In this document: positions 2,091-63,809 of the stretch, piece after piece
How positions within the stretch are numbered: position 1 is the stretch's first letter
Layout: every line of letters starts with the position of its first letter
Source: Heterotrichella gracilis
Taxonomy: Eukaryota; Sar; Xanthophyceae; Tribonematales; Xanthonemataceae
Assembly: GCA_032358255.1 (NCBI GenBank)
Contig: JAULBX010014759.1
Span: forward strand, 30,119 to 94,118
DNA: 64,000 nt
Direction of reading: 5' to 3'
Translations under genes and position numbers: made by a program
Notes under the pieces: model-generated
Database searches by the model: none
What the model was told of the DNA's origin: nothing
The model's input: only the letters and a program-made list of their open reading frames with translations

Positions 2091-5000
2091 ATGTTGCCAC
2101 GACCCACCTCTCACTCATCAGCCATTGGGCCGGGATGCGCGGGACCATCGCTCGCATTCCCTTCATCCTTCTCCTACGACCAACCACCACAGCACAACAG
2201 CCATGTCCCCTTGGCGGGAGGGGCAGCCTTCGCAGTGGACCCAGTGGCATCTAAGGGAGGCGACCCTCGTAAACACACGACGTAAGACACTGTTCCTGTC
2301 CTGCTTGTTTTGTATGCGAATTGCATTGTTGGTGGGATGGAGTCACTGTGCAGAGCATCGGTATATTTTGTATGGTGCAGTGAGTGTCTGAAAGGGTTTT
2401 ATGGAGTTCATGTATCCCTACGGTACTCCCTGTGAGCCAGTAGAAACCTGTTCGATGGGGATGCTGTCATTGCAAACGAAACAAGGTTTCACCCAGGTTA
2501 TTTTTTATATCCTGTCTGAACGGGTTTTATGCACCTCAGGTATCCCTACGTAACGGGGACCTCCGTGTTGGGAATAACGTACCAGGATGGGGTGCTGATT
2601 GCCTGCGATACACTTGGTAAGTCTGGCCATTGGCATTGCAGGGGTGCAGACAACAGGGTCCCTTGGTCATACACAGGCTGACTGCAAGGGTTTAAAGCGT
2701 GTATTGGTTCACTTGGACTCCCTTTCACAATTTTGCATATGTGCCATGGATGTACCGGCGGTTTCTGTTACCTCTGAACTTTTAAAGAATTTTTCAAAGC
2801 TAGCAGTTTGAGCAGTCATTATTGCATGCACGTCCAGATGGGTGCATCAAACCCTCAACAAACCTACGCGAGCCCTTGGCAAACCCTCTCCCTGCCCTAC
2901 CAGGTCTCTATGGTTCCACCAAGCGCTGCAAGTTGGTGGACCGCCCCACTTGAAACCCTCCCAAAGCCCCTCAACCCAAAACCCTCGTCAAACCCTCCCC
3001 AAACCCCTCTCCCTCATCCCCACAGGCTCCTACGGCTCCACCAAGCGCTACAAGTCGGTTGACCGCATCAAGAAGGTCAACGACAGCTGCATCCTGGGCG
3101 CCTCGGGCGAGATCTCGGACTTCCAGTTCATCCTCACCCTGCTGGAGGACCTTGCCACCGAGGACTTTTGCATGGATGATGGCCACAAGATGTCTGCCAA
3201 GGAGATCTATGCGTGGCTCACGCGGGTGCTGTACAACCGGAGAACAAAGTATGACCTATTACCCATGATAACCCTATTCCTAGGCTTTGGAAACGTGTTT
3301 AGGGACCCACAGTGTGAAGCATGAAACCCCAAATCCAAAGCCCTCCAGAGGAGTTTTTGCATGGTTTGACGGCACAAGATGTCTGCCAAGGAGATCTGCG
3401 CGTGGCTCACGCGGGTGCTGGACAACCGGAGAACAAAGTATGACCTAGTCCGAAACCCTGAGCATCTGCCTCCTATATCCCCTGTGTCTTTTGTGTTCTC
3501 CCAGACAGGTATCATCCCATGTCTCTACCTTTTCTCCCGTACCTTTTGTTGTTCGTTCGCGGTGTTTGAAACCCTTGGAATGCCCTCCTATATCCTCTTT
3601 TCCTCTGCAGGTTTGACCCCCTGTGGAACTCCCTGGTGGTGGGTGGCTTTGCGGATGGCAAGCCATTCCTGGGGAGCGTGAGCATGCTGGGGGTGCACTT
3701 CACAGACGCACACGTGGCAACAGGTGGGGTGTATGCTGTAGGGTTTTATACTGTAGAAAATAAGGGTTGTAGGGTTTTAGGGTCGTTCTGGGCAGTGTGT
3801 GCATGCTAAGGGTGCGCATCACAGACGCACACGTGGCAACAGGTAGGGTGTACCCTGTAAGGTTTTAGAGTTTCGCCCTGGCAGTGTGAGCATGCCGGGG
3901 GTGAGGCGCGCACGTGGCAACAGGTGTTTAGGTTGTTGGTTTAGGGTTGCCTTGGGGCAGCATGAATGTGCCAACCGACTTGTGCAAAGCTGCCCCTGAC
4001 TCTGCAACCCTGATTCCCTGTCACCCCTTTGCAGGCTTTGGCAACGACCTAACACACCCCTTGTCCGTGACAAGCCACCACCTTGCCCGCCTCCTGCAGG
4101 CTTTGGCAAAACTTTAAACCACAAACCCTACAGCTAAATCCCACCTACTCCCCCGCAGGTTTTGGCAACCACCTTGCGCGCCCCCTGTTCCGCGAGAAGC
4201 ACCGCCCAGACATGAGCGAGCAGGAGGCAATAGACCTCATGTGCGAGGGGCTCAAGGTGGGGACAAAACCCTAGCAGAACCCTAAACTGTGCCCTAATCT
4301 CAAAACCCAACATGATGAGGAGATAATCGACCTTGGTCCATGCAACGGTCCATGCAACCCTCATCCTTCAAACCTCGCCCCGAGAAGAGTATGACCAAGG
4401 GCATCCTAGCCATTGTGACCAAAACTCTACAAACCCTGATCCTTCTCCCTGCAGGTTTGCTGTTACCGCGACAAAAACAGCATTTTAAAGTTTTAATTAA
4501 CCAAAAATATTAAAACCTAAAACCCCTCCCTGCAGGTTTGCTACTACCGCGACAAGAACAGCATCAACAAGTTCACACTGGCCAAGGTGACCAAGGACGG
4601 GGTCACTATCTCAGATCCCTTCGCACTGGAGACCAAGTGGGACTACAAGGTAATCCTGAATGCCCTGCGCTGGAAAACCCCGTGATGCTGCAACCCTCAG
4701 CACGTGTTGCCCCACTAGATACCCTTTCGAAGGGGGTATGTGTGTCCCGCGTATGTGTCACTTCACTACAACAATCAAAGGAATATGTAATCTAATATAA
4801 TCTAAAATTTAAATATAGAAACTCAATTGAGTGCATGTCACTTTGCTACTGCTATAATGCGCCAGTGCCACGGGTCGTGAAGACACCACCACATGGGGTA
4901 GCATATGTCCCTCATATTCCATCCATCTGCCATTACCCTGCCCTGCACTCCCAGCCCCAACCCCATTTTACTCCCTGTTGTGCTACGGCTCTTATTGACT

Positions 5001-5193
5001 GCAGATCTTTGAGAACCCTAAATACTGACTCTAAACACACAGTACTGAACCTCCATGTTCTGCTGCAGACCTTTGAGAACCCAGCGCCCCAGCCCTCAAC
5101 CCTGAATCCACAACCCTAAAGCAAATATTGACCCTTCCTGTGCTGCTGCAGATTTTTGAGAACCCAGCGCTGAATGCAGTGGGGACGTGGTAG
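2091..5193 (+). CDS. PSMB4: 20S proteasome subunit beta type-4 (beta7)
   Basis: Seven exons: 2091-2281, 2540-2616, 3026-3248, 3611-3723, 4159-4256, 4536-4649 and 5152-5193. They sum to 858 nt, giving 285 aa plus TAG. Exon 1 gives a roughly 60-residue N-terminal extension; this subunit carries a propeptide, but the exact start (only in-frame ATG, 2091) is less sure. After it come YVTGTSVLGI, GSYGSTKRYKSVDRI, LGASGEISDFQ, WLTRVLYNRRTKFDPLWNS, GVHFTDAHVATGFGNHLARP, YYRDKNSINKF and the C-terminus NPALNAVGTW. The match is closest to plant PBG1. GTS rather than a mature catalytic Thr fits a non-catalytic beta subunit of the inner ring. Introns 2-6 contain degraded repeats of the neighbouring exon edges, including decoy splice sites. 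Confidence 0.96.
3340..3447 (+). repeat. Intronic copy of the PSMB4 exon 3 end
   Basis: Copies about 100 bp of exon 3 (3153-3252). It runs from the GAGGACTTTTGCATGG region through AAGATGTCTGCCAAGGAGAT, GTGGCTCACGCGGGTGCTG and the donor AACAAAGTATGAC, with only scattered changes. It lies 100 bp downstream inside intron 3. The donor site is kept, but small indels upstream change the frame. It looks like a partial tandem duplication or a cryptic alternative exon. Confidence 0.9.
3783..3930 (+). repeat. Two intronic copies of the PSMB4 exon 4 end
   Basis: The end of exon 4 with its donor (GACGCACACGTGGCAACAGGT, 3703-3725) recurs almost intact at 3825-3845. It recurs again, more decayed, at 3880-3925 (GCGCGCACGTGGCAACAGGT). 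Each copy keeps the CAG/GT donor junction. Confidence 0.9.
4034..4110 (+). repeat. Two intronic copies of the PSMB4 exon 5 start
   Basis: TTTGCAGGCTTTGGCAACGA at about 4030 and CTGCAGGCTTTGGCAAAACT at about 4095 both repeat the exon 5 acceptor and first codons (CGCAGGTTTTGGCAACCACC, 4155-4174). Both keep the AG acceptor. The first copy also carries a diverged version of the following CTTGCGCGCCCCCTGTTCCG stretch. Confidence 0.85.
4452..4490 (+). repeat. Intronic copy of the PSMB4 exon 6 start
   Basis: TGCAGGTTTGCTGTTACCGC and the following GACAAAAACAGCAT repeat the acceptor and first 12 or so codons of exon 6 (4531-4575). The copy lies 80 bp upstream, then runs into AT-rich intron sequence. 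Confidence 0.88.
5001..5085 (+). repeat. Two intronic copies of the PSMB4 exon 7 start
   Basis: GACTGCAGATCTTTGAGAAC (about 5000) and CTGCAGACCTTTGAGAACCC (about 5065) repeat the last acceptor, CTGCAGATTTTTGAGAACCC, at about 5146. All three are usable-looking acceptors. The true one reads IFENPALNAVGTW and stop. Confidence 0.85.
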
Positions 5194-6425: not shown

Positions 6426-6504
6426 GGTTACCCTTGTTTCCAGCTTGTGTGCAAGAATATAAAACCGTAATATTCTTGCACACAAGCTGGAAACAAGGGT
6501 AACC
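6426..6504. repeat. Perfect 35 bp inverted repeat with 9 nt loop
   Basis: Bases 6426-6460 are the exact reverse complement of 6470-6504; the loop is 6461-6469. The stem begins GGTTACCCTTG at the outer end. A perfect 35 bp stem is too long to be chance. Candidates are a small-RNA hairpin precursor, a recent palindromic insertion (foldback/MITE core), or an RNA 3'-end structure, since it sits about 150 bp past the VPS39 stop codon in that gene's direction of transcription. Confidence 0.9.
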
Positions 6505-9600: not shown

Positions 9601-12600
9601 CCTACACCAAAACCCTTCGCGCACCTCTCTCCGCGACCTCCCCCAGACTGCTGTCATCCTCCTCCACCACCCCACCCGCCAGGTCTCTCCAAATCCCCAG
9701 CGCCCCAGCCGCATCACCATGCCCCGCCTTCAACAGCGCCAGCGCGTGCCAATGCCCTCTCTGCCCCAGAACCCCCTCCACCCCCGCCACATCCACACGA
9801 TTGTCCCCCCTGGCAAAACCCTCCAGTAGGGTGAGTGCTCCCAGGTCTGACAGGAGGAGGGAGGCAAGGGTGTCGATGCCAGCTGGAGCCTCCACGCCCT
9901 CTCGCCCTCTGATCCGGAGCAGGTAGTCCGCCACCGCTTGTTTACCCTAGGGATTTTGGGGAACGGGGTTAGTGGATCGACTGTTGCTCGCTTGGGAGAG
10001 GGTTTCAGTGGCGCATTGGGGTATAGGTGATAATCATTTTGATTACAAGCCCTGGGGAGTAATTGGAGGGTTCTCCCGCTCAAATTTCATTCACATCAGC
10101 CTCTCTCCATCAAGCATCGGTTTTTTTAGTGTTTCCCATACGCCATTCCGTCGCACCCACCCACCTCCAACGCCAACAGTGCAGCATGCTCCTCCGCATC
10201 CCCCCCGCCCCCCCTCCCATTCCCATTCATCCTGCCCACCCCCTTGTCGATCATCGTGTGCAGCTCTTGCAAGGGGGGGTGCAGGCCCCAATACCTCTTA
10301 GAGGGGAGGAGGTGGTGCCAGGTGGCGGCGTAGGACGGGAACAGGGGGAAGAGCTCAATGGGCTGAAACAGGGAGGTGGAGCATTGCTCCAGGAGCTGCA
10401 TGGCGCGCTGGAATTGGAGGTCTGCATGGGATAGGAGGAGGATTAGAGGAATCTGCACAGGAATACAGCTTCCACATTACTACTGAATCATGCAAAAATT
10501 TAACCTTGCTCATCCCACATTTCACCCTAGCCCATACCCTTACCATGATATGAGCAGCCGCGCCAACCAGCGCCAGCACCCGCACACCATCCCGACCCTG
10601 GTCACACATTTTCCCGCTCCAGCCCAAACCTTCTAGCTCGGCCCTCACCATGGACGAGCAGCAGTGCTGCCGGCGTCCGCGCGGTTTCTGCCCACGGCGC
10701 CCCTTGTCCCGCCACCAGCGCCACACTCCAGCAACAGCCCCATGCTTCAACCCTAAAGTTGTGCCACACCCTTGCCCAAACCTAGCCCGGTCCTCACCAT
10801 GGATGAGCAGCCGCGCTGCCTGTGCCCCCGCATTTTCTGGCAAAAGGCGCCCCCCGCATCGCCCCCAGCCACAGTCCATCTCAACCTCACACCCTAAAAC
10901 CATGCCCAACCCTAGCCCAACCCTCACCATGTATGAGCAGCAGGGCTGCCTGCGACCCGCACGTTTTCAACCCACGGCGCCCCCTGCCCCCATCCCACCT
11001 TACCCCACACCCCAGCCACAGCCCAATACCATGAACCTGAACCCTAAAATCATGCCGCACCCCAGCCCCAACCCTAGCCCGCCCCTCACCGTGTATGAGC
11101 AGCAGTGCTGCCTGCGCCCGCGCGGTTTCTGCCCAGGGTGCCCCCTGTCCCGCTGCTGCCTCCGCCAGTGCCAGTGCTGCTTCTATTCTCCTGGAGGCCA
11201 TGAGCTGCCTGGCCTGGTCCTCAAGGGGGATGGGGCGCAGGAGCCACACCTGGGGAGAATGGATGGAGAAATTACTTTGCATTTTCTTTGTATGCGCATC
11301 TGATTATTACTAACATGAATGAATACCATGAGCTGCCTGGCTTGGTCCGCAAAGGGGACGGGGTGGAGGAGCCACACCTGGGAAGGGAAACAGATAAGGA
11401 CACTTATTTTGCATTTTTAAATGCAAACATCTATACCATTTGTATTATACCATGCATAACCCTGGCCATTCCCTACCTACCGAAGACTGCAGGGGCTCGG
11501 GCCTTCAAGCCCAATGGAAAACCCTACCCCGCCGTTACCAGGCAACTCCTCCCTTGGCCATGCAACCCCAGCCCCGACCTCCAGTAAAAATCCCTAGCCC
11601 GGAACCCTACCTTGCTGTAACCCGCCACCACCAGGCAGCTGCCCGCAGGGTTGCCCGCAGCAACCATGCTCTGCCCGGGTGCTGCCCTCCCCACACACAA
11701 TCGACTGCACCCCCCTTGCGCCGCCGCGATCAAACACGTGCACCCCACCCTCCAGAAAGAAAACCCCTGATAAACTGAGCCCAAACCCTACCTTGCTGTA
11801 CCCCGCCACCACCAGGCAGCTGCCCGCAGGGTTGCCCGCCGCAACCATGCTCTGCCCGGGGGCCGCCCTCCGCCCCTCCCCATAGGCTATGGTCTGCACC
11901 CACCCCGCGCTGTCCCGATCAAATACGTGCACCCCGTCCTCGCACACCGCCAGCACATAGAGCCCGCTGTGCAGCAGGGCGCAGGGGGGAGAAGGGAAGG
12001 TGAGGCCGGCACTGGTGGGGCTTCCCTGTTCATCCACTAGGATGCCGGCCTGATCCTGCAGGAGGTTGGAGATTTGAATGTTTGGATTTTGGCAGGGTAA
12101 AAAAGCAGAGCAGGGTTGCCAGCAGCAGCCCAGGGCGCCTTCGCAACCAGCTATAATTACACCACCACCACCACCACCACCCACCGCACCATGAGCAGCA
12201 GCGCCAGCCCCGCCTGTGGCAATGCTGCCAGCAGCAGCGGGCAGGGAGACTCCGGAGCACCAAAACAAGCTCAAAGCACAACACACCACCACCACCCACC
12301 GCACCATGAGCAGCAGCGCCAGCCCCGCCTGTGGTAGGGCCGCAAGCAGCAGCGGGCAGGGCAACTCCGGTGGCACCGAAAACAGCTCCGAGCACACCCC
12401 CGACCCCGGCTGCAGCAGCAGGTACTTAAAGGGAGTGCACAGCAGCAGGCGGCCGCCCACCCACGCCATGGACTGCATGCAGGGGGTGATAAATTGATTG
12501 CAGGAACGGGCAAAACGGCAAATGCACGAGCGCAAGGGGAGCGTGCAGGCACAGGATGAAGGGGAAGGGGGTTTTCAGATAGCAGCAGGCATTTTAAGGT

Positions 12601-18100: not shown

Positions 18101-21100
18101 GAAAGCTTTAGCACTGCAACCCTCTCTGCTGCGCTGACCAAGGAGATATGCACACTAGGCAGCACTATGTACACAGCATCCGGCCCTTGGATGTGACCTC
18201 TGTGCTGCGCAGACCAACCCAATGCTGCGCGCCTTGCTCTTTGGCTACAAGCGCACAGCAGCATTATGGAATGTGTAGGGTTGGGCCTAAACCCTGACCT
18301 CTGTGCTGCGCAGACCAAGGAGAACCTAACCCTGCGCGCCTCCAGCTTTGGATCCAAGTGCGAACTGCCCGACCCCTTCCTCACCAAGGTGTTCAAGTGC
18401 GGCATTGCGGACAACATCCTCTCCTTTGCAACCTTCAAGCAGAACAAGGATCTCAAGAAGAGCGATGGGGCCAAGCGCCAGCGCATCGTGGGTGAGTATT
18501 ATAATAACTGTGAATTGATGGGTGTGACTGCAATGTATGGCCTGCAAAATCAGCACTGGCAGTGCGCATGACAAAGCATTTGTAGCTAGATGATGCCACA
18601 CTGTCAATTTGCGGACTTTATGAATATCACGTGATAGCTGCAGCTCATGAGTGGCAGTATACATCACTGCCGAATAGTCAGCAGCATGGCCAATACATCA
18701 AATTTCATGCATAAAAACCTGGACGGGTCTGAGGCATGCCACCAGGTCAGCACAATGGGGTGAGGAAAGGGCTTAAAGGCTTTGAAATACTCTGGCTGCA
18801 CTGCTTGAAAGTATGGCATGGCATGTGGTGGCTACGCGCAAAGAGGCATGCTACTAACCTTGCGTCTTGAATCGTTGCCAGGCATCCCCAAGCTGGACGA
18901 CGCCAATGAGGCTGGTGGCAGGAACTCCGAGCGGTGCACCCTCATCCTCACAGAGGGAGACTCTGCCAAGACGCTGGCGGTCAGCGGACTGAGTGTGGTG
19001 GGCAGGGACAACTTTGGTGTCTTCCCACTCAGGTGGGTTGGGTTAGGTGGGTTGGGCCTTCATATAAAATTGGTATTGTGCTTTCATTGGTTTGCACATA
19101 ACAACCTCTCGAACCGGAATGAGGAATCTGAGGGGCAATCTTCAATTGCAACTTGTCAAATGGCAAGCCCATTTTGGCAGTCGCCCTGGTGGCAGCGTAA
19201 TGTGTTGCGCTTGGGCCAGCACATAACGACATGCTTCATTGTGCGCCTGCAGGGGAAAGCTGCTGAATGTGAGGGATGCCAGCGCGGTGCAGATCTCTGC
19301 AAACGCAGAGATCCAGAACATCAAGCAGATCCTGGGCCTGCAGCATGGCAAGGTGGGCAGCGCACCATGGTTCCCAGCATATCAGTTCGTTCAGTCAAAC
19401 TGTAATTGAACCCACTGTTGCCTGTGCCCTCCTTGCTGTCATGAAGCCGCGCACACCAATGCATTGGCTGCATGGCTCGGCCTACGCACAGTAGCACACC
19501 ATGCACTGGAGCTAGTGAGTCTACAGTGTGCAGTTGTAATCACCATGAACTGATGTGACTGATATATGCTTCTGAAATACAAATAAATAATAAGAATTCA
19601 TTTGTTTGTGTTTCAGCAATACACTGACGTGAAGCAGCTGCGCTACGGCCACCTGATGATCATGGCGGACCAGGACCACGATGGCTCCCACATCAAGGGC
19701 CTCATCATGAACTTCTTCCACCACTTCTACCCATCCCTGCTCAAGCTGCCGGGCTTCCTCATCGAGTTCATCACGCCCATCATCAGGGTGAGGAACACAT
19801 GCGCATAGCACGTGCACAGCATGCCCATCAGCAGAGCATGCAGTGTACACAAACATACCGACTAGATTAGTATGTCCCTGGAGAAGGTGACAGTGCTCTC
19901 CAGCCACACATGTGCATGTGGCACCCATTGTGCGACGCGCACACTTAGTTGCATTATTTTTCCAGGCCACCAAGGACCGTCGCACCATCTCCTTCTACAC
20001 CATCCCTGAGTACGAGGAGTGGGTGGAGCAGCAGGGCGACCGCCAGCGCCAGTGGAAGATCAAGTACTACAAAGGGCTGGGGACCTCCACCCCCAAGGAG
20101 GCCAAGGAGTACTTTGCAGACATCCAGAAGCACAGGAAGGAGTTCCAGTGGGCAGGTATGCAACTTTTAAAACCAAACCACAAGCAACAGATCAGACCAG
20201 ATCTGTCTGCATTGTGTGGACATCAGGCATCACTTCCATCCCATTTTAAGGCATGAGATTGGTCTATGAATCGGTTATGATGCTGTGGTATCTTGACGTT
20301 TCCTTTCCCATCAGGAAAGCAGGAATTTTTGTTGTGTGTATCATATTGGTGATTCTCACCCTTTTTTGCTTGCGCTGTTCAGACGAGGACGACGGCGAGG
20401 CCATCAACATGGCCTTCTCCAAGAAGAAGATCGAGGAGCGCAAGGCGTGGCTGCGCAACTTTGTGCCCGGCACCTACCTGGACCACTCCCAGAACCGCAT
20501 CAGGTACACGGACTTCATCAACAAGGTAAGGCGCATACTGCCACTGTGGGCTGCAGGGCTCAGTTCGTGGTATTGCGGCGGTATTGATAACCAAACCCTT
20601 AACCCTACACTCTGACCTCACTCACTGTGCAATGCCACACTGTGGACATTTCTTGACCCCCGTCCCTACACCTATCTGAGCACGTTGTACACACGCGTTG
20701 CTTTGCGAATGTGTGCGCCTGAAAATCCTGCATGCTATTTCCACCTCCCAAAAGCCTACTCAACCCTCCCCTGCTCCCTACCCCGCTGCAGGAGCTGATT
20801 CTCTTCTCGCGTGCCGACCTTGAGCGCTCCATCCCCTCCATGGTGGACGGTCTCAAGCCAGGCCAGCGCAAGATCCTGTATGCGTGCTTCAAGCGCAACC
20901 TGCGGGCGGAGATCAAGGTGGGGCGTGGACATTGAAGGTGGCTGCTGACATGCACTGCAGGGCCATACTTGCATTCCATCACATGTCCGTAATGACGACC
21001 CGTGTCATGCACAATGCATGTGTTGCAGCAGTGTTGCCAAATGGCACCGCCGATGCTGACTCCGCCAAGGTGTCACTGCCCAACCATAGAAATTCGGACT

Positions 21101-52147: not shown

Positions 52148-55100
52148 TTATTGCCCCGTCGCAACACCCCCCCTGGCCCCCGTGGCCCCCTCACCCTGCG
52201 CACTCCCCCCCGCCACCATCTCCCCCCTCAGCTTCATCAGGAGCCTGCCCAGGTGGTTGTGGCCGCTGCCATCGAACCCCCGCCCCCAGAAGAAATCGTG
52301 CGGGCTGCCCTCGACCAGTAAACAGGGCCTGCAGTGGTGGGTAAAGGGGGGTGTTAGGATAGGTTCCGGTGAAAACCCTAAGGTATAAACCTTAAAACCC
52401 AACAATTGAAGGGGAGGGTGAGATGTGGGTGAGAGCGATCAGCCCTCAAACCAGTAAGCAGGGACTGCGGGAGGGGCAGGGTGGTGGTTAGCGAGTGACA
52501 CACAAACCCTAAACCCTAGACAGTGAGGTATAAGGGGGGTCGTGCAGGAGGCACTGGGTGGAACCCTAAATCCTAAACAGCGGTTGGGCGGGTTGCCCTT
52601 GACGACCAAGACCCAGACTCTGGGCCAGAGCAGGCAGTTTGGAGGGACAAGGGGGGGTTGACCAAATTTGTATTGATATTGGTCTAATAGTCCAATAATA
52701 GTCGCCTAATCACCGTACTTTTACAGCCGTCCACACTTAAAGATGCATATACATTCACAACCTAAAACCCAACTCCCACCCACTCACCCCTCGCCCCCCC
52801 TCCCCGCGGTATCCACCAGCAGCTCACGAGGCCCCTGGTGCGCCTCAAATTTGGCCCTCAGCCCTTGCTCCATGGCCGCCAGCTTGGCAGTGGCCCAATC
52901 GGGGCGGACGAGGTGGGGACGCAGGCGCTGGGCACCCCGCCCCGTGCGCGCTGCCTCCTCTGGGGACTGGGCGCTGGCTGCGGTGGGGGGAGGGGGTGGC
53001 GGGTGGGTGGTGGGTGGTTATAAGGGGGGGGGTGCAGGTTGTGTGGGGGTTAGTGTGGCGTGGGTGAGGAGGGTGGAGGTGGGGCCGCAAATGCCTGGGG
53101 CAGCCGCCAGGTATAATGATCCACAATGTAGTAATTACTACATATATATAACAAATGGCAAACGCAGCTAGGCATGCTGCCAGGCTCGTCATGGACATTT
53201 CACTGAGGGATGGCACGCCTGGACATGGGGAATGGACCAACACAAAAAAACCCTCATCCTCTCCCACCCATGGTTTCCACCATCGCCTGGGATTCGGGGT
53301 CGTCCACTTCAGCACACTTCTGAGCCAGTAACAGTGTTCCACCAAGCAATTGGGATACATTTAGGCTCGAACCATAATCCCGCCTGATAATAAAGGTTTG
53401 AACCTTTCCCATGGATGTAACTACCCGCAGCTTGGGCCACAGGCAGGCATGCCAGGCAGGCATGACCCGGTGACCATGTCCCCAAGCCGTTGTGCTGTGC
53501 TGATCCAGGGCCACATATTGATGATGGTTTATCATCTCATTTATTACTGTGCTGCTCCAGGCCCTAACCAGGCTTCCTCAGCAATGCACTCCCCCCCTTG
53601 CTTAGCAATACTCACCTATGGTTTCCACCAGCTCCCGGGCCTCGGGGTCGTCCACTCCAGCAAACTTCTGTGCCTGGTAGTAGTGTTCCACAGAGGACCA
53701 GGTGCGCTGCGGCTGCCCCTGAGATTGCGGTTCGTGCTTTTGGTGATCCCGGGGTTCTTGGGGCTGTCCCCGGGAGGTGGCAGGGGCCAGGGGGAGCGTT
53801 ATCGGGTGCGGCGAGAAGTTGGAGAGGGCCCCGTATTTGTCCCAGGCTTTGTAGAACTCGGCCACCTGCACAGCGTGGGTGGGTTTTCAGGCGCAGGTGA
53901 GATTTGTGACCCCAATTTCAGTTCTTTCAACGGCCGGCTACGCCTATGCCATCCCTGGTCCATGATGGCATGCCTGCTGGTCGGACATGAACATGTGTGC
54001 TCATGAGGATTCTGAGTTCATCAGGAATGCCTGAGGCCATGTCCACGCGCATGAGCAGTATTGGTGAGTAACCGATGGTGGGTACACGTACCTTGACCCT
54101 GCGCCAGTTGCGCCTGCCGCTCCCCTCCGCCTCGCCCCCCCGCCCCCCCTCCTCCAGCCCCACCGTGCCGCTCCCCCCTTGCTCCCCCGCCCCCATCTGG
54201 TTGTGCAGCGCCCTCAACCCCCCTGAGGAGGGGAGGTAGCCGGTGAGGAGCAGGTCTGGGCCGACCTGCAGGGGTGGGGGGTGGGGGATGAGGAGTGGGG
54301 GTGGGGAGTGGGGGGTGAGGGGTGCGGGATGGGATGGGGGGTGAGGGATGGGGTGGGGTGGTGGGGTGATAGTGGTGACCGCATGTGAGCGCGTGTGGGG
54401 AATGTCACAATACCAAGTGGGGGATGAATGGGGTGGGGTGGTGTGGTGAGGGGTGGGAGGTGGGGGGTGGGGAGTGGGACGGTGGATGGTGACGATAGCA
54501 TATCACACCCAGAGGTGCCACAGCATCGCAACATCGTGCACCCCCACAACCTTGCATCCAGGAATTCAGCTGTTGTGGCGCATTAGGGTGTATAAACCCT
54601 GTACAAAGTGGCACCACATGGTGCATCAGGGTTTCGCTAGGGTTTCCGCGCCCCACCTGCTGCCACGTTGTTTCCGATAGCTGCACCGCCTGTGTCATCT
54701 CCACAAACCCTAGGTCACCAACCGGGGAGGGGGCGCGCACACCACCAATCTGGGCAACAGGGAAAAGGGTGTCAACAATCATGGAAAGAGGGAGAAATCA
54801 ACCCTAGCGCACACGCTTGGGCGTCGAACACCACGAACCCTACGTCCAACTTTGTCACATCGGCCGCAATGCTAAACAAAGGTCAGGGTTCTGTGTGGAT
54901 GACCCCTGCTACACAAACCCTCAACCTAATGTCAGACTCTCCACCCTGACTTCCCAGCTTGGGCGACAACTGCCATGTCTTGTGGATGACCCCCCTGCAA
55001 TGGCAGGCGCAGCCAACATGCCTCCACAATCCCACAGGCACTGCACCAACCCTAAACTGCACCCGAGCGGTCCCCCTCACACGCCCCAAGCCGCCATCCC

Positions 55101-58100
55101 ACACGCCGCACACCCTAGACCCTATAACGCACCAGCTTGGGCGCCACGAATGCCATGGTTTTGTGGATGACCCCCCCAGCAATGGCAGGCGCAGCCAGCG
55201 TGCCCCCGCATTCCCACAGGCATTGGAGGAACCCCCGCACATAGCAGTACCCCGCCACCGCATCGGGGGTGAGGAAATCGAACTCCACCACCTCCACCCC
55301 CCTGGATCTGAGGCGCCGCTGGAAATCCGCCCTTGCGCCCCGCTGGGTCATGACGATGGTGGGGGCCAGGGAAATGTCCCACAGATTGGCTTCCTGCGGG
55401 GGTGGGAGGGGTGGGGGCTAAAGAGGCGGCTTGGGACGTGGGTAGGGTGGTGCGAGGTGGGTTGGTGAGAGTTCATGCAATCACAGAAGGGGCTTACTTG
55501 CATCCTTACTGCACACTAAATTCCAGCAGTGCAGCCAGAGTAGCAGTCTGTCCTACAAGCCTTGCGCCAACCTCACTTGATCAAATGGCATTTTTTTAAT
55601 CACACCAAATCCCACCCGATCACCCACCTCAGGCAGGTCCAGGGTGCGCGACATGACTATGCGCACAGGGGTGTGCCCCCCCTCCTGGCGCGTGGTCAGC
55701 CGCGGGTTGTCCCTGCGCACGGTGTTGCCACCCACTATCACCGCGTCGCTGCGCGCCCTCTCTGAAAACACGCGCAGCCGCGACTGGCTGCTGCTGACCT
55801 GGAGTGGGGAGGGTGGAGGGATGGCGGGGTGAGGGGGTGATCAGCAAGTACATTACACATGCACAGCCATCCTTGCTATCACTATGTGATACTGATGCAT
55901 TGCGCCGACAGTCTGTAGCGGTCTAGATGGTGATACCATCGCACCGTGCCACTGCAGGTACCACAAGCAAGGAAGGAAGGCCTCCATGCGCTTGCAAATG
56001 CCACAGCGCTGTGGTGAAGTGAAGCCAAATACAGCACTTGCAACAGCCTAATATTTCATTCTCCACCACCGAGACCTCGGAATGCTCATACCCCAGTGGG
56101 AAACTCACCCATGCTGAGTGGCCCGAGCACGTTGCGATCTTCCCATCCAATGTCATGGCGTACTTGAGCAACCCTAAGGGTTTCTTCAGCAGCGCGCGGT
56201 GCAGCAACGCCTCGTTGGCTGCCAGGACCGAACCCAGGGCCTCCTCCTGCACACATAGGGTTTGGGGTTTGTAATCCAGGGTTTAGGGTTTCAGGTTTGG
56301 CGTCCAGGGTGCAGCAGCACTTCATTGGCGCCAGGACCGAGCAAAGGGCCTCCTCCTGCACACACGCAGGTTTAGGGTTTATATTTAAGGGTTTAGGGTT
56401 TCAGGTTTGAGGTCCACGGTGCAGGGGCATCTCATGGGCGGCCAGGACCAAACCCAATGCCTTCACACACAGGGAGTTGGGTTGATAGCCAAAGCTTTGG
56501 GGTTTCTGCTGCTGCATGCTTGGAGAGTATTCCCTACGCGTGACATTAGGGTTTAGGATTGAGACAACAACATGCCCGCTCCATCGCCCCACCCACCAAC
56601 ACATACCTATATCCCCGCTACTCATGCACCACCGCCACCACCACCCACCTGCAACGCCTCATCCACGCTCCCCCCTCCCTCGCCAAGCACAGCCACAGCC
56701 ACCCCCGCCTGCCGCAGCCCCCCCACAGCCACCCCCCCCAGGTGGGTTAGGGGGTGCTTCATCCCCACCACCACACGCGTCACCCCCCCTTGCACCAGCG
56801 CGCGCAGGCTGGTGGCATCCCCATGGCAGTCGCCTGTTTCTAGGTTGAGGTAGGCGGTGGCGCCTGATGCTGCAGGCCCTGCGCTGGTGATTGCTTGCAC
56901 CTCGGCAGAGGCAGTGCCCTGCAGGGAAAGTGGAACAGGGTTTCATTCTATTTCAAAATAATATAATCTCTCTTATTTTAGAGGGGGTGGGAGGTGGGCC
57001 AGCTTTCATGTTTTAGGCTTCAGGTCTTTAGGTTGAGATAGGCTATGGCGCCCAATGCTGCAGGGTCTGCGCTGGTGATTGCTTGCACCTCGGCAGAGGC
57101 AGTGCCCTGCAGGGATGAGGTTGCGACGGTAATGGGATGTGGGACGTTGAGGTAGATGAAATCTTGTCTTCACTGCAATTTGAGACAACCTAGGCCCTTT
57201 CCCCTCGCCACAAGCACGATGACGGACCTATTGGATCCCACCCTAACAAACCACCACCCACCCTGCGCCAGCTGGGATGGGTGGGTGCTGGCAGGGCCAT
57301 GTCGCTGGGTACCACTGGGAAAAGCAGTCCTGATTACAAACACCACCACCCCTTGCGTCTCATTCACCCCACCACCCACCTGCGCTCGTTGGAACGTGGA
57401 TGCCAGTCGCGTGCCATCTGGTGCCACCAGTAGGCACCCAGCGTTGGGGTGGGGCTGGGTCAGGCCTGCAGGGTTGGAGGGTTTTAGTAGGGTTTAGGGC
57501 AGGGGTGGAGGGTTTTGGATATGGGTTTGGATGGTATTGGTAGCGTGGGGTGGGCCTGGGTCAGGCATGCGAGGTAAAGAGCGGTAGGAGGCATTAGATG
57601 CATGCAGCACTTGATAGGGTTTTTTGTGCGGACATGGGGCAGCACAGTACCCTAACTCGCAAACCCCAAGTTACAATAATCACCGGCCCTTTAATACTCC
57701 TCACCCGCCAAGCTTGCTGCCGGCCGTGCAGCCTCAATGAGGTCCCACAATACCCTAACCCACACACCCTACAATTACCCCAACACAGACCCTAGAATGT
57801 CCCTCACCTGCTGAGCTGTCTGCCAGCCGTGCCGCCTCGATGAGGTAGCGCAGGTCATGCTCTGCAGTGCACAGCAAACTTTAATGATGCTGATCAATGG
57901 CCAATCAATCTACTCTAAGCTGATCAGCCACCAGGTAGCGCAAATCATGCTCTGCAGAGTACAGGAAAGATAATGATCAGTGGCCAAATTACAATCTGGG
58001 CTAATCAGTGACCAATTGTAATCATCTGACAAATCAGGACCCCGTCATGACAATCAGGTAACGCAGGGTCATGCTGTGGGGTACACAGGAAGCATAATGA

Positions 58101-59771
58101 TCAAGCGTCAATTGTAATAATCTGGCTGTGCCGTGACCCTATCACCACAACTGCAGGCTGTGCAGGTTGTGCTCCACTTTACATAGGAAAGAGGTGGGCT
58201 GAATATGCAATAAATCACACATGAAGCATTGTCGAGGCCTCTCGGGTGGTGCGCACCTGTTATGAGTTGAGGGTTGCTGCCATTCTGCCCTGCCCCACAC
58301 CACACACCCTGCAATGAAATGCACACATTGAGGTTCAAAATGTAGGATTTAGGGCTTAACGCTGCAAATTAGACATGGGCAACCATTCGCCCTTTGGCGC
58401 AAGGGCCCAGTCAACACGGCTTTGCCATTGGAGGTTACAAAAAAATGCAATATGACAACGCGCAACACGGCACCAGCAATACAGGGTACACCGCAGCATT
58501 TGACAGACGCAGTGGGGCACCAATAAGAGGTGTGTGCTGGGTCTGGCTCTGGAAAGCAACAATGGAGCAGTGCTCCTCCGCCCCCATTGTCACGTGCAGC
58601 ATGGTGGCGTTGCGCCGCTATCAAACCCTAAGCCCTAGCAGGCGGTAACCCTACAATGCAAATTAAAATGCATCATGCCGACCAATAATACCGCGTCACA
58701 TGAACTGACGACCTGACTGGTGCCGCATTGCCACCTGTCATGTTGGCATCCTGTGCACCCTGCCTCATTGGTGATACAACAGACTGCGCTGCACTAATCA
58801 ATGCCACAAGGAGGAAGGGAGCCCATGATGACAGCATGACAGAGCACAATGCGGCACCAATAAGGACTTTTGCTCGCCCAAAGTGGGATGCAAGAATAAA
58901 ACCAGTACTATCCCCCCCACTGATGCATCGAGGCGCCGCTAAACCCTGCCGTGTGCGCCGCGTAACCCTTAAACCCTGCCGTGTGGTTACCCTACAGTGG
59001 AGCCCTGTGATGCACGCCACACACCCCTCTCCGCTGCCTACACTGTGCTGAGGCAACATGGAGTGCAAGGCTATGCTCCCGCCAGTTCACATAAGCGGTC
59101 TGCCCACTATGGTGTGCAGCTGCAAACTCTTAACCCTAACCGGTGTGATGGTGCATGCTGTGTCCTTGTCGATGTGCTCATGCGCAGCTGCTGTCAAACC
59201 CTAAACCCTAGCGAGTGATGGTGCCTGCCAAGCACTTGTGGACGTGACAGTGAGGAGGCAAAGTGGGATGCATGGCCGAATTTGTAACGATATAGAGAGC
59301 ACTGTGGCCTTGCCAAACCGTGGTGGTAGGTAGTGCAGTACATAGGCGCATTTTATTAACTTAGTCGAGCCATCCACCGCTTGCAAACCAATTCTAGGGT
59401 CTTGTCGCCAGCAAAGTAAGTCAGTGATTCAGCCTAGGCGCTTCTACACTAGACCACATCACCAAAGCTACACACAGTTGCATATAAAACATAAGTACCT
59501 CTCACATGAGTTGCCTCCCTAGTGTGGCCATGCACACGCAGTGAACAGAACCACCACAAGTGCATTCCCATTTGCAGGCACAAGGACAGGCATTAGAAAC
59601 TTATTTTCTTACCAGCTGTAGTGGGCGGGGCTGGATCTGGCGGGGGTGCCGTCCCCTGGAGGCGGTTTGGTGTGGCCCCCTTGGAAGCGTTTGGGAGGTG
59701 GATGGCTGGCTGTGGTTGGTGAGCCTGGATGAGATCGACTGTGACGGGAATTGTGACAGGCCCATTGTCAT
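52148..59771 (-). CDS. PYRR: PYRR-type riboflavin biosynthesis protein: RibD-like plus NADAR domain
   Basis: Exons: 59613-59771, 58257-58308, 57808-57861, 57380-57465, 56649-56918, 56109-56246, 55628-55798, 55133-55393, 54657-54749, 54092-54265, 53616-53865, about 52790-52977 and 52148-52328; roughly 690 aa. The Ser/Thr/Arg-rich first exon looks like a plastid transit peptide (inferred). A deaminase-like domain follows (IEAARLAD, QPHPNAGCLLV) with lost zinc ligands: SAEV for HAEV, and LETGDCHG for the PC-x-H-x-G-x-T-P-x-C loop. The RibD reductase part is intact-looking: YAMTLDGKIAT, SDAVIVGGNTVRRDNPRLTTR, VRIVMSRTLDLP, and FLQCLWECGGTLAA. The C-terminus is a NADAR/YbiA domain: LSNFSPHPI, VEHYYQAQKFAG, SPHDFFWGRGFDGSG and LGRLLMKLRG. 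Plant PYRR proteins share this order: inactive deaminase, pyrimidine reductase, and a NADAR domain proposed to hydrolyse damaged intermediates. Exons 1-2 and the last donor are the weak points. Several introns carry exon-edge copies. Confidence 0.92.
52432..52610 (-). repeat. Intronic copies of the PYRR last-exon start
   Basis: The acceptor and first codons of the last exon (52300-52335: CAG then CCCTGTTTACTGGTCGAGG) recur on the minus strand at 52440-52470 (CGCAGTCCCTGCTTACTGG, TTGAGGGC). A shorter copy is at 52585-52612 (TTGGTCGTCAAGGGCAACCC). Confidence 0.75.
53255..53350 (-). repeat. Intronic copy of the PYRR NADAR exon end
   Basis: Reading the minus strand, LLLAQKCAEVDDPESQAMVE and its donor repeat the genuine exon 11 end (53616-53700, YYQAQKFAGVDDPEARELVE). 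The identity GTGGACGACCCCGA and TGGTGGAAACCAT make this unmistakable. The copy is in frame locally and could be a second NADAR half-exon or a dead duplicate. Confidence 0.88.
54840..55040 (-). repeat. Intronic copies of the PYRR exon 8 end
   Basis: 54957-55040 repeats 55134-55222, the end of exon 8 (GTGGATGACCCCCCTGCAAT, ATGGCAGGCGCAGCCA on the plus strand), with the donor side. A shorter, more decayed third copy (CTGTGTGGATGACCCCTGC) is at 54890-54910. The ladder spacing is about 120-180 bp. Confidence 0.9.
56310..56470 (-). repeat. Two intronic copies of the PYRR exon 6 start
   Basis: The exon 6 acceptor side (56197-56262: GCCAGGACCGAACCCAGGGC, CTCCTCCTGCACACA on plus) recurs at 56310-56365 (GCCAGGACCGAGCAAAGGGC, CTCCTCCTGCACACA) and at 56412-56470 (GCCAGGACCAAACCCAATGC). 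Each is separated from the next by TTTAGGGTTT-type telomere-like sequence. Confidence 0.9.
57033..57117 (-). repeat. Intronic copy of the PYRR exon 5 start
   Basis: 57033-57117 repeats 56838-56935 almost exactly over its last 60 bases (GCGCTGGTGATTGCTTGCAC, CTCGGCAGAGGCAGTGCCCT, GCAGGGA). It includes the acceptor, so two equivalent acceptors lie 190 bp apart. Confidence 0.92.
57705..58125 (-). repeat. Array of PYRR exon 3 copies with intervening intron
   Basis: The genuine exon 3 (57808-57861) has its acceptor side (TAGCGCAGGTCATGCTCTGCAG on plus) repeated at 57935-57965 (TAGCGCAAATCATGCTCTGC) and 58056-58090 (TAACGCAGGGTCATGCTGTG). Shared intron sequence follows each (AATGATCA..., CCAATTGTAATCATCTG). 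On the other side, 57712-57752 copies the exon end (CTGCCGGCCGTGCAGCCTCAATGAGG). Confidence 0.85.
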
Positions 59772-60408: not shown

Positions 60409-60873
60409 ATATCAGATTGTAAAGAACACGGCTGCTAGCAGCGTCAAATAGACAGGAGCAGCAACGCTGTGCTGTACTGTGATACAACTCCTGAAGGCTA
60501 TCGTGGCAAGGCAAAAGTTCACGCACCCACACCACGCTGGGGCCCCAGCCTATATGCATGCTATGTTGCATATGCATGCACTCCGTTTCCCAACGACCAA
60601 CACAGCCACTGACCTCGAGGCTTAGAAAAGTAGTTATTTTCTCGCCTCAACCTCCTCTTGGGGTCTACTCTGCCCCTTCTTATTCCAGCTGGGCAAGTGG
60701 AGAGTGTATGTAAAGTGGAGCAGTTGGGGTGTGGACTGACTTCCCAGTAGTACTCAAGAAACCGTCACCTCCTCTGTGGTAAAGGTTGTAGAGTTACACA
60801 GTGGCGGGGAGGTGGAGCGTCCAGTGCACGTGCCTGGCTGTAGGCCTGGCTGCCCCGAACCTCTAGGGAGCTT

Positions 60874-60928
60874 CACAGCCACAGCCACAGCCACAGCCAC
60901 AGCCACAGCCACAGCCACAGCCACAGCC
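60874..60928. repeat. CACAGC hexanucleotide repeat
   Basis: About nine perfect copies of CACAGC/CAGCCA, followed by degenerate units (CACAGCCAAAGCCAAAGCC) up to about 60980. It lies in the PYRR-PEX1 gap, 350-450 bp before the PEX1 ATG. Confidence 0.95.
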
Positions 60929-61332
60929 CACAGCCAAAGCCAAAGCCAGTGTATATTCAAGCTTCACATCCACAGCCAGTGCCACAGCTATACCCGCAGC
61001 ACATCGCCACAGCACGTGGGTGGCCCAAGGTGCACCCACCACCCACCACCCACCACCACCACCGCCATACACACACCTCCACCCCCGGGGCACACCAGGG
61101 GCAAAACAGACGTGGGTGCTGAGGAGGGGAGGGAGGGGTGTCGTCCGTGACTTGAGGCTGCATCAACTAATGAGAGGAAGTGTTGGTTTGGCGCCCTAGG
61201 GGTGGTACGACACTTGCAAGATGGCGTGACAGCTACTTTGAGACCACAGCACGTCCGGGCTTGCAAGACTATCAGAACCAAGTTCAGCATTGATCTTCAT
61301 ATTGCAGTATCAACCCCGAACCAGTGGCAGCA

Positions 61333-63809
61333 ATGGAGTTTCTGGACAGCTGGGTGACCTCCAGCGAGGAGCAGCGGTGAGTGGCTAGGGTTTTGAGTTA
61401 GGGTTTAGGGTTTAGCTTTAGGGTGTGTGGACAGCTGGGTGACCTCCAGCGAGGAGCAGCGGTGAGTGGGTAGGGTTAGGGTTTAGGGTTCAAGCTCTTA
61501 GGGTTTGGGTTCTGGAGGTGGGGACCTTCAGTGAGCAGCAGCGGTGAGTGGACTTATGTGCATTCAAGGGGTCATGCAACCTGCCTTGCATACCGTACCC
61601 TGGTACTTCCCATCAGTCTGCCAGTCCTCACCACGCCACACCACGCCACCACCACACACACACACGCTCGAGGCACGCCCCCCCTGGACCAGCGCCCTCG
61701 TGCCCTGCCTGCGTGCACCCCCTTCGTTTCACACCATCAGCAAACAGACACTCCCTTTCCCCCACACACACACACTCACTCACCACCCCCTCCCAACCCC
61801 CGCAGCCGCACTCGTCTCATGGTCACCCACACCCCTGACCGAACATGCTTCGTGGGCCTGCCCCCCTCACTCATAGGCAGGCTCATGGAGGCAGGCTGCC
61901 CACTGCCACTGGTGATGGAGCTTGTGGTAGAACGACAGACAACAGGTGCGAGAATCTCCATTATATCCCCAGGACCCTTCTGTCAGTCATAACCCTACAC
62001 TCTGCACACTAGGGTGCCGGGACAAGACCGGCACCTGGAGTCGCCAATGTAATCCACCTAGACCCTGGCGGCAGTAACCTTGTCAGGTTTAACTGTGTAG
62101 GGTCTATTGAGGCAGGCGACAGGTGGCCACGTACCATACAGGTCATATATGTGTCACACAAATATTGCTTCCAATCAAATCAAATGAATTTAAGAAATTG
62201 CTGTAAATGCCAAGGGCTTCCGTAAACCATCCACACCCAAGGATACTCACTGCGGCGCTCACTGTACCCTGTAGGGCTTTCGTCCGGCCCGCCCCCCAAG
62301 CCCTGGCACGTGGCGTGGAGCGGCGCGGCATCTCAGGGAAACTCCATTGCCATCCCCATGGCACTCGCCACGTGCCTGCAGGTGAGGATTGCCCTTCACC
62401 CACCTCCGCTGCTTGCTGTGTCGCACGCGCACAGCACACATTGGAGCGTGAAAATGGGCCTTTGCTTGTGAAACTGGCCCGCTTAATTCTCCCCGTTGCC
62501 GTCTCTCTTCCTTTCCACACCTTGCATCGTGCACACAGGAGCATTTCCAAGCCACGTGCCCGCATGTATACAACTGGCTTGCATGTTTCTTGCCTGTAAA
62601 AATGCCCAGAACATAAAATAGGTGACGATAATGGCATCCCCCAATTTCCCCACTTTTTCCAATCCCCGCAGATCCCCAACGGCACCCCCGTCAGCGTGCG
62701 TGCCCTGCCAGCAGTGGCACAGGCGGTGAGTGTGAGTGTGGCCCCTGCCTCTGTGGATGACTGGGAGGTGGTGCAGCTGCAAGCGGGGGAGCTTGAGGGG
62801 GGTATGCTGGCACAGGTGGGTGTGAGAAGGTGGTGCTGATGCTGGTTGGTGGGTAATGTTGAGCTTGTTGGTTGGGTGCTGGAGGGTTTTGATTGGGTGT
62901 AATCTTCTCCAAAGGGGCTCCATTGTCAACCATCTTTAGTAATCCCGATAAGAAATATTATCTTGCAAGAACATAATGTATGCTCACCCCAGTCATGGAG
63001 CATAAGCCATTGCACGGGCATGATGCAAGAAAGTGTGAAGGTGCAACTCCAACACTGTGTTCCCAGTTGATTTTTTTAATGCGTCTTCCCTTTTGCGATG
63101 CCAGGTGGGGGTGGTGGAACAGGGCACCACATTCCCGGTATGGGGCCCGGGGAGGTCAAAAATGCTGCTGAATGTGACGGCCACTGTGCCGGCTGGGGTG
63201 GTCAAGTTGTGCCCCGGCTCAGAGATCTACGTGGCGTCCATACCCCGCCAAAACCCTAATCAAACCTCAGTAGCTCCGGCCAGGGTGGAAGAGGGCAGCG
63301 GAGTGGCAGCTCCAGTGGCAGTTGTTGTGCGGGCAAGCCTCAGGGTGCAGGTAAGGGTTTCCAACAACACCCTAAACGCCCACCACTTGCTTCTGCTTGG
63401 CTAGGGTTCCAGCACCAGTGGCAGGTGTCAGGGCGAGCCTGAGGGTAGGTAAAGGTTACAGGCACAATTCCTGTCCAAAGCTTAAGGTTGCAGTGCCCTC
63501 ACCGGTTTCAGTTGTGGCGTCCCGCTGTTTAGTGTGTAGGATTTAGGGTGTAGGTGTGCTTGTCGGCTCACCTGATTGTTTGGCCGCCAAACTTTGGCGC
63601 GTTTGCCCTCTCCAGGACCCCCCATCACCAGATTTTACACCCCTCGCCATTTTGGACCCCTCCGACGGGGCACCTGAGCACGCCGCCGAAATGCGGCGCT
63701 GGGCATTTGGCACCATCCCCACCACCTGCGCCCAAATACACCCCTCCACGGCGCAGCAGATGGCACTGGAGGAAGGGGCATGCCTCATGCTGCAGCCGCT
63801 GACTAAGAG
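61333..63809 (+). CDS. PEX1: Peroxin-1 AAA ATPase (PEX1), N-terminal part
   Basis: Six exons are present: 61333-61376, 61806-61945, 62275-62381, 62672-62815, 63105-63350 and 63616-63809. All are in phase, giving about 291 residues; the gene continues past the window. Motifs follow the PEX1 N-terminal double-psi/beta fold: CFVGLPPSLIGRLMEAG, LVMELVVERQ, WHVAWSGAASQGNSIAIP, GTPVSVRALP, VSVAPASVDDWEVVQL, VGVVEQGTTFPVWGPGRS and KLCPGSEIYVASIPR. The AAA domains D1 and D2 must lie to the right. PEX1 with PEX6 extracts ubiquitinated PEX5 from the peroxisomal membrane. The ATG at 61333 opens a short first exon whose donor region is copied twice in intron 1. The exon 5 end is also copied once, at about 63408-63455. 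Confidence 0.9.
61426..61555 (+). repeat. Two intronic copies of the PEX1 exon 1 end
   Basis: GGACAGCTGGGTGACCTCCA and GCGAGGAGCAGCGGTGAGTGG (61345-61385) recur exactly at about 61428-61468. A trimmed form is at about 61517-61551 (GGACCTTCAGTGAGCAGCAGCGGTGAGTGG). All three keep the same GCG/GTGAGTGG donor and are separated by TTAGGGTTTAGGG-type sequence. Confidence 0.93.
63408..63455 (+). repeat. Intronic copy of the PEX1 exon 5 end
   Basis: CCAGCACCAGTGGCAGGTGT and GGGCGAGCCTGAGGGTAGGT are a diverged copy of the exon 5 end (63308-63354: GCTCCAGTGGCAGTTGTTGT, GGGCAAGCCTCAGGGTGCAG, GTAAGG), 100 bp downstream. Confidence 0.75.

What the first reader, a model, noticed from the sequence alone, without database searches (positions are those of the whole stretch)
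3153..63455. Exon-edge echoes: introns carry repeated degraded copies of the adjacent exon boundary
Seen directly: in PSMB4, VPS39, TOP2, PYRR and PEX1, at least 18 exon boundaries have one to three copies inside the neighbouring intron. Each is about 30-100 bp, in direct orientation, spaced roughly 80-190 bp apart, and usually keeps the splice site itself. Copies occur on either side of exons, at donors and acceptors alike. Inference: a recurrent local process (replication slippage or template switching near exon edges, or unequal exchange) copies exon/intron junctions, and decay follows. Decoy splice sites on this scale would be expected to generate alternative or nonsense-targeted transcripts. 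I know of no named system with this pattern.
Basis: partly seen in the sequence, partly recalled or inferred. Interest (0 to 1): 0.85.

Follow-up and report, generated by a model that had tools for sequence, protein, structure and literature searches.

The report
Exon-edge duplications decaying inside algal introns
In this alga-like genome many introns hold worn-out extra copies of the end of their own neighbouring exon, apparently scars of short local DNA duplications made when broken DNA was mended, often with telomere-type repeats beside them; short duplications are a known kind of mutation, but this density and the telomere link look unusual.

Summary
In 274 kb of nuclear sequence (window plus 21 other 10-kb stretches) 63 of 398 predicted introns contain a direct copy of their own exon edge. 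Edges from other loci gave 0 matches in 15,920 draws, and non-adjacent edges of the same gene 1 in 6,516 comparisons. Lags run from 67 to 236 bp in 69 of 70 events; inverted copies are almost absent. The copies decay as non-coding DNA while the exon is conserved: mismatch is 9.5/10.3/18.2% by codon position and 33 of 38 gaps shift the frame. They keep splice dinucleotides about as often as chance decay predicts. Assembly error and selected decoys are thus unlikely. Best reading: recurrent short tandem duplications, often with filler DNA, of the kind left by break repair. A duplication across an exon edge is tolerated and stays recognisable because the exon is constrained; a true edge preference is possible but not shown. 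New here: the DNA between copy and exon is rich in the genome's telomere repeat TTTAGGG (38 of 70 fillers against 8.8 in matched controls), suggesting telomere-type break repair. No RNA or relatives were available.

The parts
2385..2422 (+). PSMB4: degraded copy of the acceptor edge at 2513-2550 (lag 128)
   Evidence: 87% over 38 bp; the downstream exon was read by eye, the gene finder missed it
2852..2944 (+). PSMB4: copy of acceptor edge 2968-3066 (lag 116)
   Evidence: 75% over 100 bp
3166..3258 (+). PSMB4 donor edge (source) of exon 3026-3248
3259..3354 (+). filler between exon edge and copy; no second copy found in the genome
   Evidence: only itself found
3355..3447 (+). copy of the PSMB4 donor edge, lag 189, 93% identical, donor GT kept
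3788..3948 (+). two successive copies (3788-3867, 3880-3948) of PSMB4 donor edge 3669-3748
4031..4109 (+). two copies (4031-4075, 4095-4109) of PSMB4 acceptor edge 4155-4200
4445..4483 (+). copy of PSMB4 acceptor edge 4526-4564, lag 81, 92%
4999..5087 (+). two copies (4999-5018, 5043-5087) of the last PSMB4 acceptor edge 5126-5170
10538..11153 (-). VPS39: overlapping copies of exon-edge units, lags 149-443, with telomere-like filler
11603..11941 (-). VPS39: unit around an exon edge duplicated, lag 181, 83% over 158 bp; the gene finder calls both copies exon, one is probably an echo
12117..12396 (-). VPS39: tandem array, period about 110-115 bp, overlapping predicted exons
18121..18254 (+). TOP2: two copies (18121-18146, 18194-18254) of acceptor edge 18295-18361
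21786..21828 (+). TOP2: copy of exon segment 21973-22015 (40 nt inside the exon), lag 187
24614..24669 (+). TOP2: copy of acceptor-side exon segment 24780-24835, lag 166
25045..25130 (+). TOP2: copy of donor-side exon segment 24870-24953, lag 175
26382..26406 (+). TOP2: copy of exon start 26480-26504, lag 98
53265..53342 (-). copy of donor edge 53613-53691, lag 348-349, the longest lag found
54954..55052 (-). PYRR: copy of donor edge 55132-55234, lag 178-182
56197..56453 (-). PYRR: tandem array, period 110 bp, exon acceptor edge plus telomere-like repeats
57029..57115 (-). PYRR: copy of acceptor edge 56841-56927, lag 188, 92%; no second copy of filler 56928-57028 found
57643..58103 (-). PYRR: one short exon (about 57808-57861) with copies of its edges on both sides
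61343..61551 (+). PEX1: first donor edge in three tandem units, period 85 bp, TTTAGGG-like filler
63410..63457 (+). PEX1: copy of donor edge 63307-63359, lag 103

Best explanation
The echoes are decaying short tandem duplications (mostly 65-240 bp from copy to copy) made one after another in genes, most likely when breaks with long single-stranded ends are filled in and joined, often with extra filler DNA between the copies. A duplication inside an exon breaks the protein and is lost. One across a splice junction is harmless, because one junction stays in use and the other becomes intron; the exon copy is kept constant by selection, so the match can still be read after the surrounding intron has drifted. 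In this genome the process is tied to the telomere repeat TTTAGGG: fillers and echo introns are rich in it, so the mending may use telomere-type synthesis (telomerase and/or CST-primase), or telomere-like tracts in introns may be the fragile places that break. Shown: local, direct, own-edge copies, neutral decay, longer introns, telomere-repeat enrichment. Inferred: break repair and the telomere enzymes.
For: Own-edge specificity: 63 of 398 introns against 0 of 15,920 other-locus draws. Direct orientation and short lag: 171 direct pairs of at least 30 bits with lag 15-250 bp against 5 inverted in 274 kb. Tandem arrays with constant period exist (periods 85, 110, 115 bp), and 13 of 35 pairs with testable flanks also share the intron flank at p < 0.05. 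Neutral decay of the copy with a constrained exon: 9.5/10.3/18.2% mismatch by codon position, near the 1:1:2 expected, and 33 of 38 alignment gaps not multiples of three. Splice dinucleotides kept in 23 of 27 donor and 19 of 25 acceptor copies against about 79% expected. Echo introns are longer (median 384 against 275 nt; 228 after subtracting the lag). Telomere link: 49 of 63 echo introns against 106 of 335 others carry the heptamer (odds ratio 7.6; 5.4 for introns of 200-700 nt, 44 of 58 against 90 of 245); within-gene permutation p 0.0018; fillers with motif 38 of 70 against mean 8.8, maximum 17, in 1000 matched draws from non-echo introns; the other 19 cyclic words of the same composition reach at most 2.6 per kb in fillers against 42.6. 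TTTAGGG arrays begin within 10 bases of the start of 7 contigs. Telomerase RNA-binding domain, Ku and several family-A polymerase loci are present. Precedent: PMC7215372 and PMC2246262 (passages read) report telomere-repeat insertion at breaks, sometimes with direct target duplication, attributed in the former to staggered breaks; PMC8355091 (passages read) reports small tandem duplications from CST/Pol alpha-primase fill-in.
Against: Several young-looking pairs lack recognisable duplicated intron flanks although the exon part is 92-93% identical (PSMB4 3249-3610, L018 6559-7055, L006 9451-9939), so plain tandem duplication does not fit them and filler or a more complex event must be assumed. 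The orientation expected if telomerase extends both 3' ends (G-rich next to the left copy, C-rich next to the right) was not seen: donor fillers lean the other way (p 0.05), acceptor fillers lean the expected way without significance (p 0.3). 32 of 70 fillers have no telomere heptamer; against other parts of the same introns the contrast is smaller (34 of 65 fillers against 18.5 of 65). Part of the telomere association lies between genes. Edge matches are more frequent relative to intron-only repeats than the uniform models predict. After subtracting the lag echo introns are slightly shorter than others (p 0.013). No relative with an empty site was available.
Confidence: 0.62

Rival explanations
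1. A process aimed at exon edges (breaks or template switching concentrated at splice junctions, for instance through transcription structures or nucleosome edges) copies the junction into the intron; this is not just a general duplication seen best there.
For: Observed 63 edge to 16 (or 11) intron-only repeats against 1.7-2.5 predicted for whole-unit and 0.4-0.7 for filler-bearing duplications. Lags cluster at about 100 and 187 bp; 9 of 69 fall in 187-189, p 0.0075 against a smoothed distribution. Telomere heptamers are 6.3 per kb in introns, 1.9 in intergenic DNA (only 40 kb) and 0.9 in exons.
Against: Whole-unit duplication explains much of the ratio, and intron-only repeats were scored without gaps, which undercounts them. 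Intron-only tandem repeats of similar lag do occur.
Confidence: 0.2
2. Replication slippage or unequal exchange between chromatids, without break repair, makes the tandem copies.
For: Direct orientation, local, and some arrays of two to three units with constant period.
Against: Almost no lags below 60 bp (1 of 224 pairs with lag 15-2000 bp), filler between copies in part of the pairs, and the telomere-repeat link.
Confidence: 0.1
3. The copies are kept for a function, such as decoy splice sites or alternative exons that send transcripts to decay.
For: Copied donors are nearly as strong as the real ones (17 of 27 at least as strong).
Against: Codon-position pattern and frameshifting gaps show unconstrained decay; splice dinucleotides are kept only as often as neutral decay predicts; acceptor copies are weaker than the true sites (9 of 25 at least as strong).
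Confidence: 0.05
4. Assembly artefact or collapsed haplotypes.
For: Reads were not available here.
Against: Copies differ from the exon by 0-30% in a codon-structured way and hold indels; they occur in 13 of 22 stretches, from 11 contigs.
Confidence: 0.02

Closest known systems
Short tandem duplications from staggered-break or paired-nick repair (CST/Pol alpha-primase fill-in: PMC8355091, passages read; rice 'patch-mediated' duplications: known to me only through its citation there and recall)
   Same: Direct, adjacent, short duplications; extra mutation at some junctions
   Different: Here the lag has a floor near 65 bp and modes near 100 and 187 bp, the density in genes is very high (a recognisable one in 63 of 398 introns), and telomere repeats are associated
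Interstitial telomeric sequences inserted at breaks in mammals (PMC2246262 and PMC7215372, passages read)
   Same: Telomere repeats inside the genome linked to break repair; duplication of flanking sequence in 6 of 130 rodent, 4 of 25 primate and 3 of 66 horse loci (2 more of the 66 with other changes)
   Different: There duplication is the exception and telomere tracts are the search target; here the duplication is the main feature and the telomere words are short and degenerate, within introns
Plant telo boxes (PMC3022908, passages read)
   Same: Single telomere units scattered in genes; a telomerase-at-free-3'-ends model proposed
   Different: Concentrated in 5' UTRs, and among introns in the first two, in Arabidopsis; no link to exon-edge duplication in the passages read
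Intron gain by tandem duplication (PMC4974935 and PMC2891723, title and start of abstract seen in a search listing only)
   Same: Tandem duplication beside splice sites
   Different: Here existing introns are lengthened; in the table, 29 of 30 donor copies end at least 84 nt before the far splice site
Direct repeats near splice sites (PMC11782384, abstract and first part of the discussion read)
   Same: Direct repeats near intron borders read as break-repair scars
   Different: Those are 4-30 bp repeats shared by the two ends of an intron; here copies of one edge, mostly 30-110 bp, lie inside the intron

Membership tests
Short tandem duplication by break repair | copies in direct orientation and close together | tested here: met
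Short tandem duplication by break repair | whole unit duplicated, or separated by filler | tested here: inconclusive
   intron flank also homologous at p < 0.05 in 13 of 35 pairs, not shown in 22; arrays
Short tandem duplication by break repair | ancestral allele without the duplication | not testable with these tools
   the genome tool states that it holds no relatives of this genome
Telomerase-mediated insertion at breaks | species telomere repeat present between the copies | tested here: met
   38 of 70 fillers against 8.8 expected (32 of 70 without); telomere identity
Telomerase-mediated insertion at breaks | strand orientation expected from extension of 3' ends | tested here: not met
Telomerase-mediated insertion at breaks | bases in register at the empty site | not testable with these tools
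   no empty site available
Alternative or decoy exons under selection | coding or splice-site constraint on the copy | tested here: not met
Intron gain by tandem duplication | copy of the upstream edge ends at the 3' splice site | tested here: not met
   read from the table: 29 of 30 donor copies end at least 84 nt before it, one (window 11671-11791) 14 nt before it
Dispersed introner-like elements | copies at many places in the genome | tested here: not met
   one echo stretch and two fillers searched, each found only at its own place; the tool skips very common words, and only these three were tried

The most novel reading that the evidence does not exclude
In this lineage gene-body breaks are routinely mended by a telomere-type pathway (telomerase and/or CST-primase synthesis on long 3' ends) that leaves duplications of set size, near 100 and 187 bp and possibly set by nucleosomes, with telomere-like filler preferentially at exon edges, and this pathway is a main source of intron growth.
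Probability: 0.25. Interest if true: 0.8.

Novelty: new variant of a known kind. Interest (0 to 1): 0.62.

Why it matters
Introns usually drift too fast for their growth to be read. Here the constrained exon acts as a ruler, so single duplication events can be counted, aged by codon position and linked to a repair signature. This would make a direct test possible of how introns lengthen, how spliceosomes tolerate strong decoy sites nearby, and whether telomere enzymes mend ordinary breaks in algae. It also warns gene annotators: my own gene finder took some echoes as exons (seen by eye in the predicted proteins).

Tried and rejected
Assembly artefact, slippage, selected decoys and intron gain were considered and set aside as told above. 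A strict model of telomerase extending both 3' ends failed its orientation prediction. The search for a genomic source of two fillers found none. A first gene finder over-predicted tiny exons and was replaced. A first simulation timed out without output and was replaced. Ten literature searches listed no title or abstract start that describes exon-edge copies with telomere filler; only listings were seen for most papers and only open-licence PubMed Central papers are searched, so this is weak. Passages of two algal genome papers (PMC5966456, PMC8226300) held nothing on it. Comparison with relatives was not possible.

Rows dropped before counts: loci L004, L005 and L015 (GC 35-37%, unlike the nuclear loci) and L022 (all N); predicted genes under 300 coding bases; introns under 80 or over 1500 nt, or beside exons under 20 nt. 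One search used 35 of 59 pairs (39 reach the splice site, 35 of these have both flanks). In the simulation only 255 of the 398 introns, those without a recognisable repeat and with long enough exons, served as templates. The 63:11 ratio was made by comparing the lists by eye.
Full report
What was checked. The window is G000:C149:30119-94118, part of a 68.5 Mb genome in 903 contigs. It encodes intron-rich nuclear genes of an alga-like organism: TTTAGGG telomere arrays begin within 10 bases of the start of 7 contigs, and the best solved-structure match of the PSMB4 model is 7qve chain u, which I recall as the spinach proteasome. The species was not identified. Pfam supports the gene names: proteasome subunit, CNH, TOPRIM_C and DNA topoisomerase, RibD_C and PEX-1N above cut-off; the two Vps39 models matched below cut-off.

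The observation. A self-comparison of the window gives 54 direct pairs of at least 28 bits with lag 50-300 bp and 1 inverted pair; three dinucleotide shuffles gave none of that score at lags of 50-500 bp in either orientation. One search lists 97 pairs at a lower score. It yields 398 usable introns. A local alignment of each exon edge (up to 100 bp plus the splice site) with the interior of its own intron passes score 40 for 34 donor and 36 acceptor edges, in 63 of 398 introns; 16 of these 70 are in the window. Controls at the same score: reverse-complement edges 0 and 1 of 398; reversed edges 0 and 0; edges from another locus 0 of 7,960 and 0 of 7,960; non-adjacent edges of the same gene 1 and 0 of 3,258. 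The pattern occurs in 13 of 22 stretches, from 11 contigs, and is uneven: chi-square 123 on 39 degrees of freedom between genes with at least four introns, from 9 of 13 introns in one gene to 0 of 23 in another.

What the copies are. Lags lie between 67 and 236 bp in 69 of 70 events, the last being 349. In the whole sample direct pairs of at least 30 bits peak at 100-120 and again at 180-200 bp; 171 have lags of 15-250 bp, 1 of them below 60, against 5 inverted pairs. Mismatches between exon and copy are 9.5, 10.3 and 18.2% at codon positions 1, 2 and 3, and 33 of 38 gaps are not multiples of three (the smaller set gave 9.7, 11.1, 18.7% and 31 of 34). This is what is expected if the copy drifts freely and the exon changes mainly at silent sites. 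Splice dinucleotides survive in 23 of 27 donor and 19 of 25 acceptor copies, about as expected from overall identity. Copied donors remain strong (17 of 27 at least as strong as the true site), copied acceptors less so (9 of 25). Echo introns are longer by about the lag (median 384 against 275 nt; 228 after subtraction, then slightly shorter than the others, p 0.013). Residues 3-199 of the PSMB4 model align with its solved relative without the copies. Assembly error and selected decoys are therefore unlikely.

How they arise. Tandem arrays with constant periods (85, 110 and 115 bp) and shared intron flanks at p < 0.05 in 13 of 35 testable pairs speak for tandem duplication. In other pairs with a 92-93% identical exon part, such as PSMB4 3166-3258 and 3355-3447, nothing beyond the exon and splice site matches, and no second copy of the 96 bp between the copies was found in the genome. 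These fit duplication with filler, or a local templated insertion. A simulation of uniform duplication with neutral decay gives 1.7-2.5 edge matches per intron-only match for whole units and 0.4-0.7 for units with random filler. Observed are 63 to 16, or 63 to 11 when intron-only repeats inside echo introns are left out (one search compared by eye). Much of the apparent edge preference can thus be geometry and selection, but an additional preference is not excluded; the intron-only count was made without gaps and is a lower bound.

The telomere link. Introns carry TTTAGGG-type heptamers at 6.3 per kb, intergenic DNA at 1.9 (40 kb only) and exons at 0.9. They occur in 49 of 63 echo introns and 106 of 335 others (odds ratio 7.6; 5.4 for introns of 200-700 nt). 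In the filler between copy and exon the density is 34-36 per kb, elsewhere in the same introns 10.6, in other introns 4.5. 38 of 70 fillers hold at least one heptamer, against a mean of 8.8 and a maximum of 17 in 1000 matched draws from non-echo introns; against other parts of the same introns it is 34 of 65 to 18.5 of 65; the 19 other cyclic words of the same composition show nothing comparable. Within genes the association remains (49 observed, 40.6 expected, permutation p 0.0018). The motif is in the filler only in 19 events, beyond the copy only in 7, in both in 19, in neither in 25. So telomere words came partly with the duplication and partly stood in the duplicated unit; repair with telomere-type synthesis and breakage at telomere-like tracts both remain open. 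A strict prediction of strand orientation was not met. Telomerase, Ku and family-A polymerase matches are present, which only shows that the tools exist; CST genes were not searched.

Known and new. Short tandem duplications from fill-in of staggered breaks are known (PMC8355091, passages read). Telomere-repeat insertion at breaks, at times with duplication of flanking sequence, is known in mammals: 6 of 130 rodent, 4 of 25 primate and 3 of 66 horse loci (PMC2246262 and PMC7215372, passages read). Scattered telomere units in plant genes are known (PMC3022908, passages read). PMC8226300 (passages read) calls TTTAGGG ancestral to green algae. What I did not see in the listings of ten searches of an open-licence library is the combination and the scale: recognisable own-edge duplications in 63 of 398 introns, a floor near 65 bp and modes near 100 and 187 bp, and telomere-type filler. 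I therefore rate it a new variant of a known kind.

Limits. One genome, self-made gene models without RNA, no relatives and no reads. Some echoes were taken as exons by the gene finder (seen by eye), which hides events. The 187 bp mode rests on 9 of 69 events (p 0.0075) and needs a larger sample.

Noticed in passing
window 33169-33254 and 32760-32836: An element of about 80 bp in two predicted introns of one gene; the first has 42 listed matches in the genome, itself included, the others at 77-95% identity (a lower bound), like a short interspersed or introner-like repeat.
   Followed up: partly
window 6436-6500: Near-perfect inverted repeat of about 30-bp arms between PSMB4 and VPS39 (read by eye); possible hairpin or element end.
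   Followed up: no
window 30749-40456 and 42072-50346: Two neighbouring, similar receptor-kinase-like genes (read from predicted proteins, not run against Pfam) with almost no exon-edge echoes, in contrast to their neighbours.
   Followed up: partly
window 26874-27639: TOP2 tail: three similar predicted exons in a row (26874-26960, 27079-27165, 27426-27639), so whole-exon duplication also occurs; a further degraded copy lies in the intron at 27319-27395.
   Followed up: no
G000 contigs C1 and C100 (L004, L005, L015): GC 35-37% against 51-61% in the other stretches, and few local repeats there; C1 is 894 kb. Organelle, foreign or AT-rich nuclear DNA.
   Followed up: no
G000:C442:116638-117765 and C111:216815-217945: Two nearly full-length family-A DNA polymerase matches in uninterrupted frames of 943 and 948 aa in an intron-rich genome: organelle-type genes or bacterial contigs.
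   Followed up: no
lags of direct pairs, 21 loci plus window: Second mode at 180-200 bp, 9 of 69 lags at 187-189; nucleosome-sized, unexplained.
   Followed up: partly
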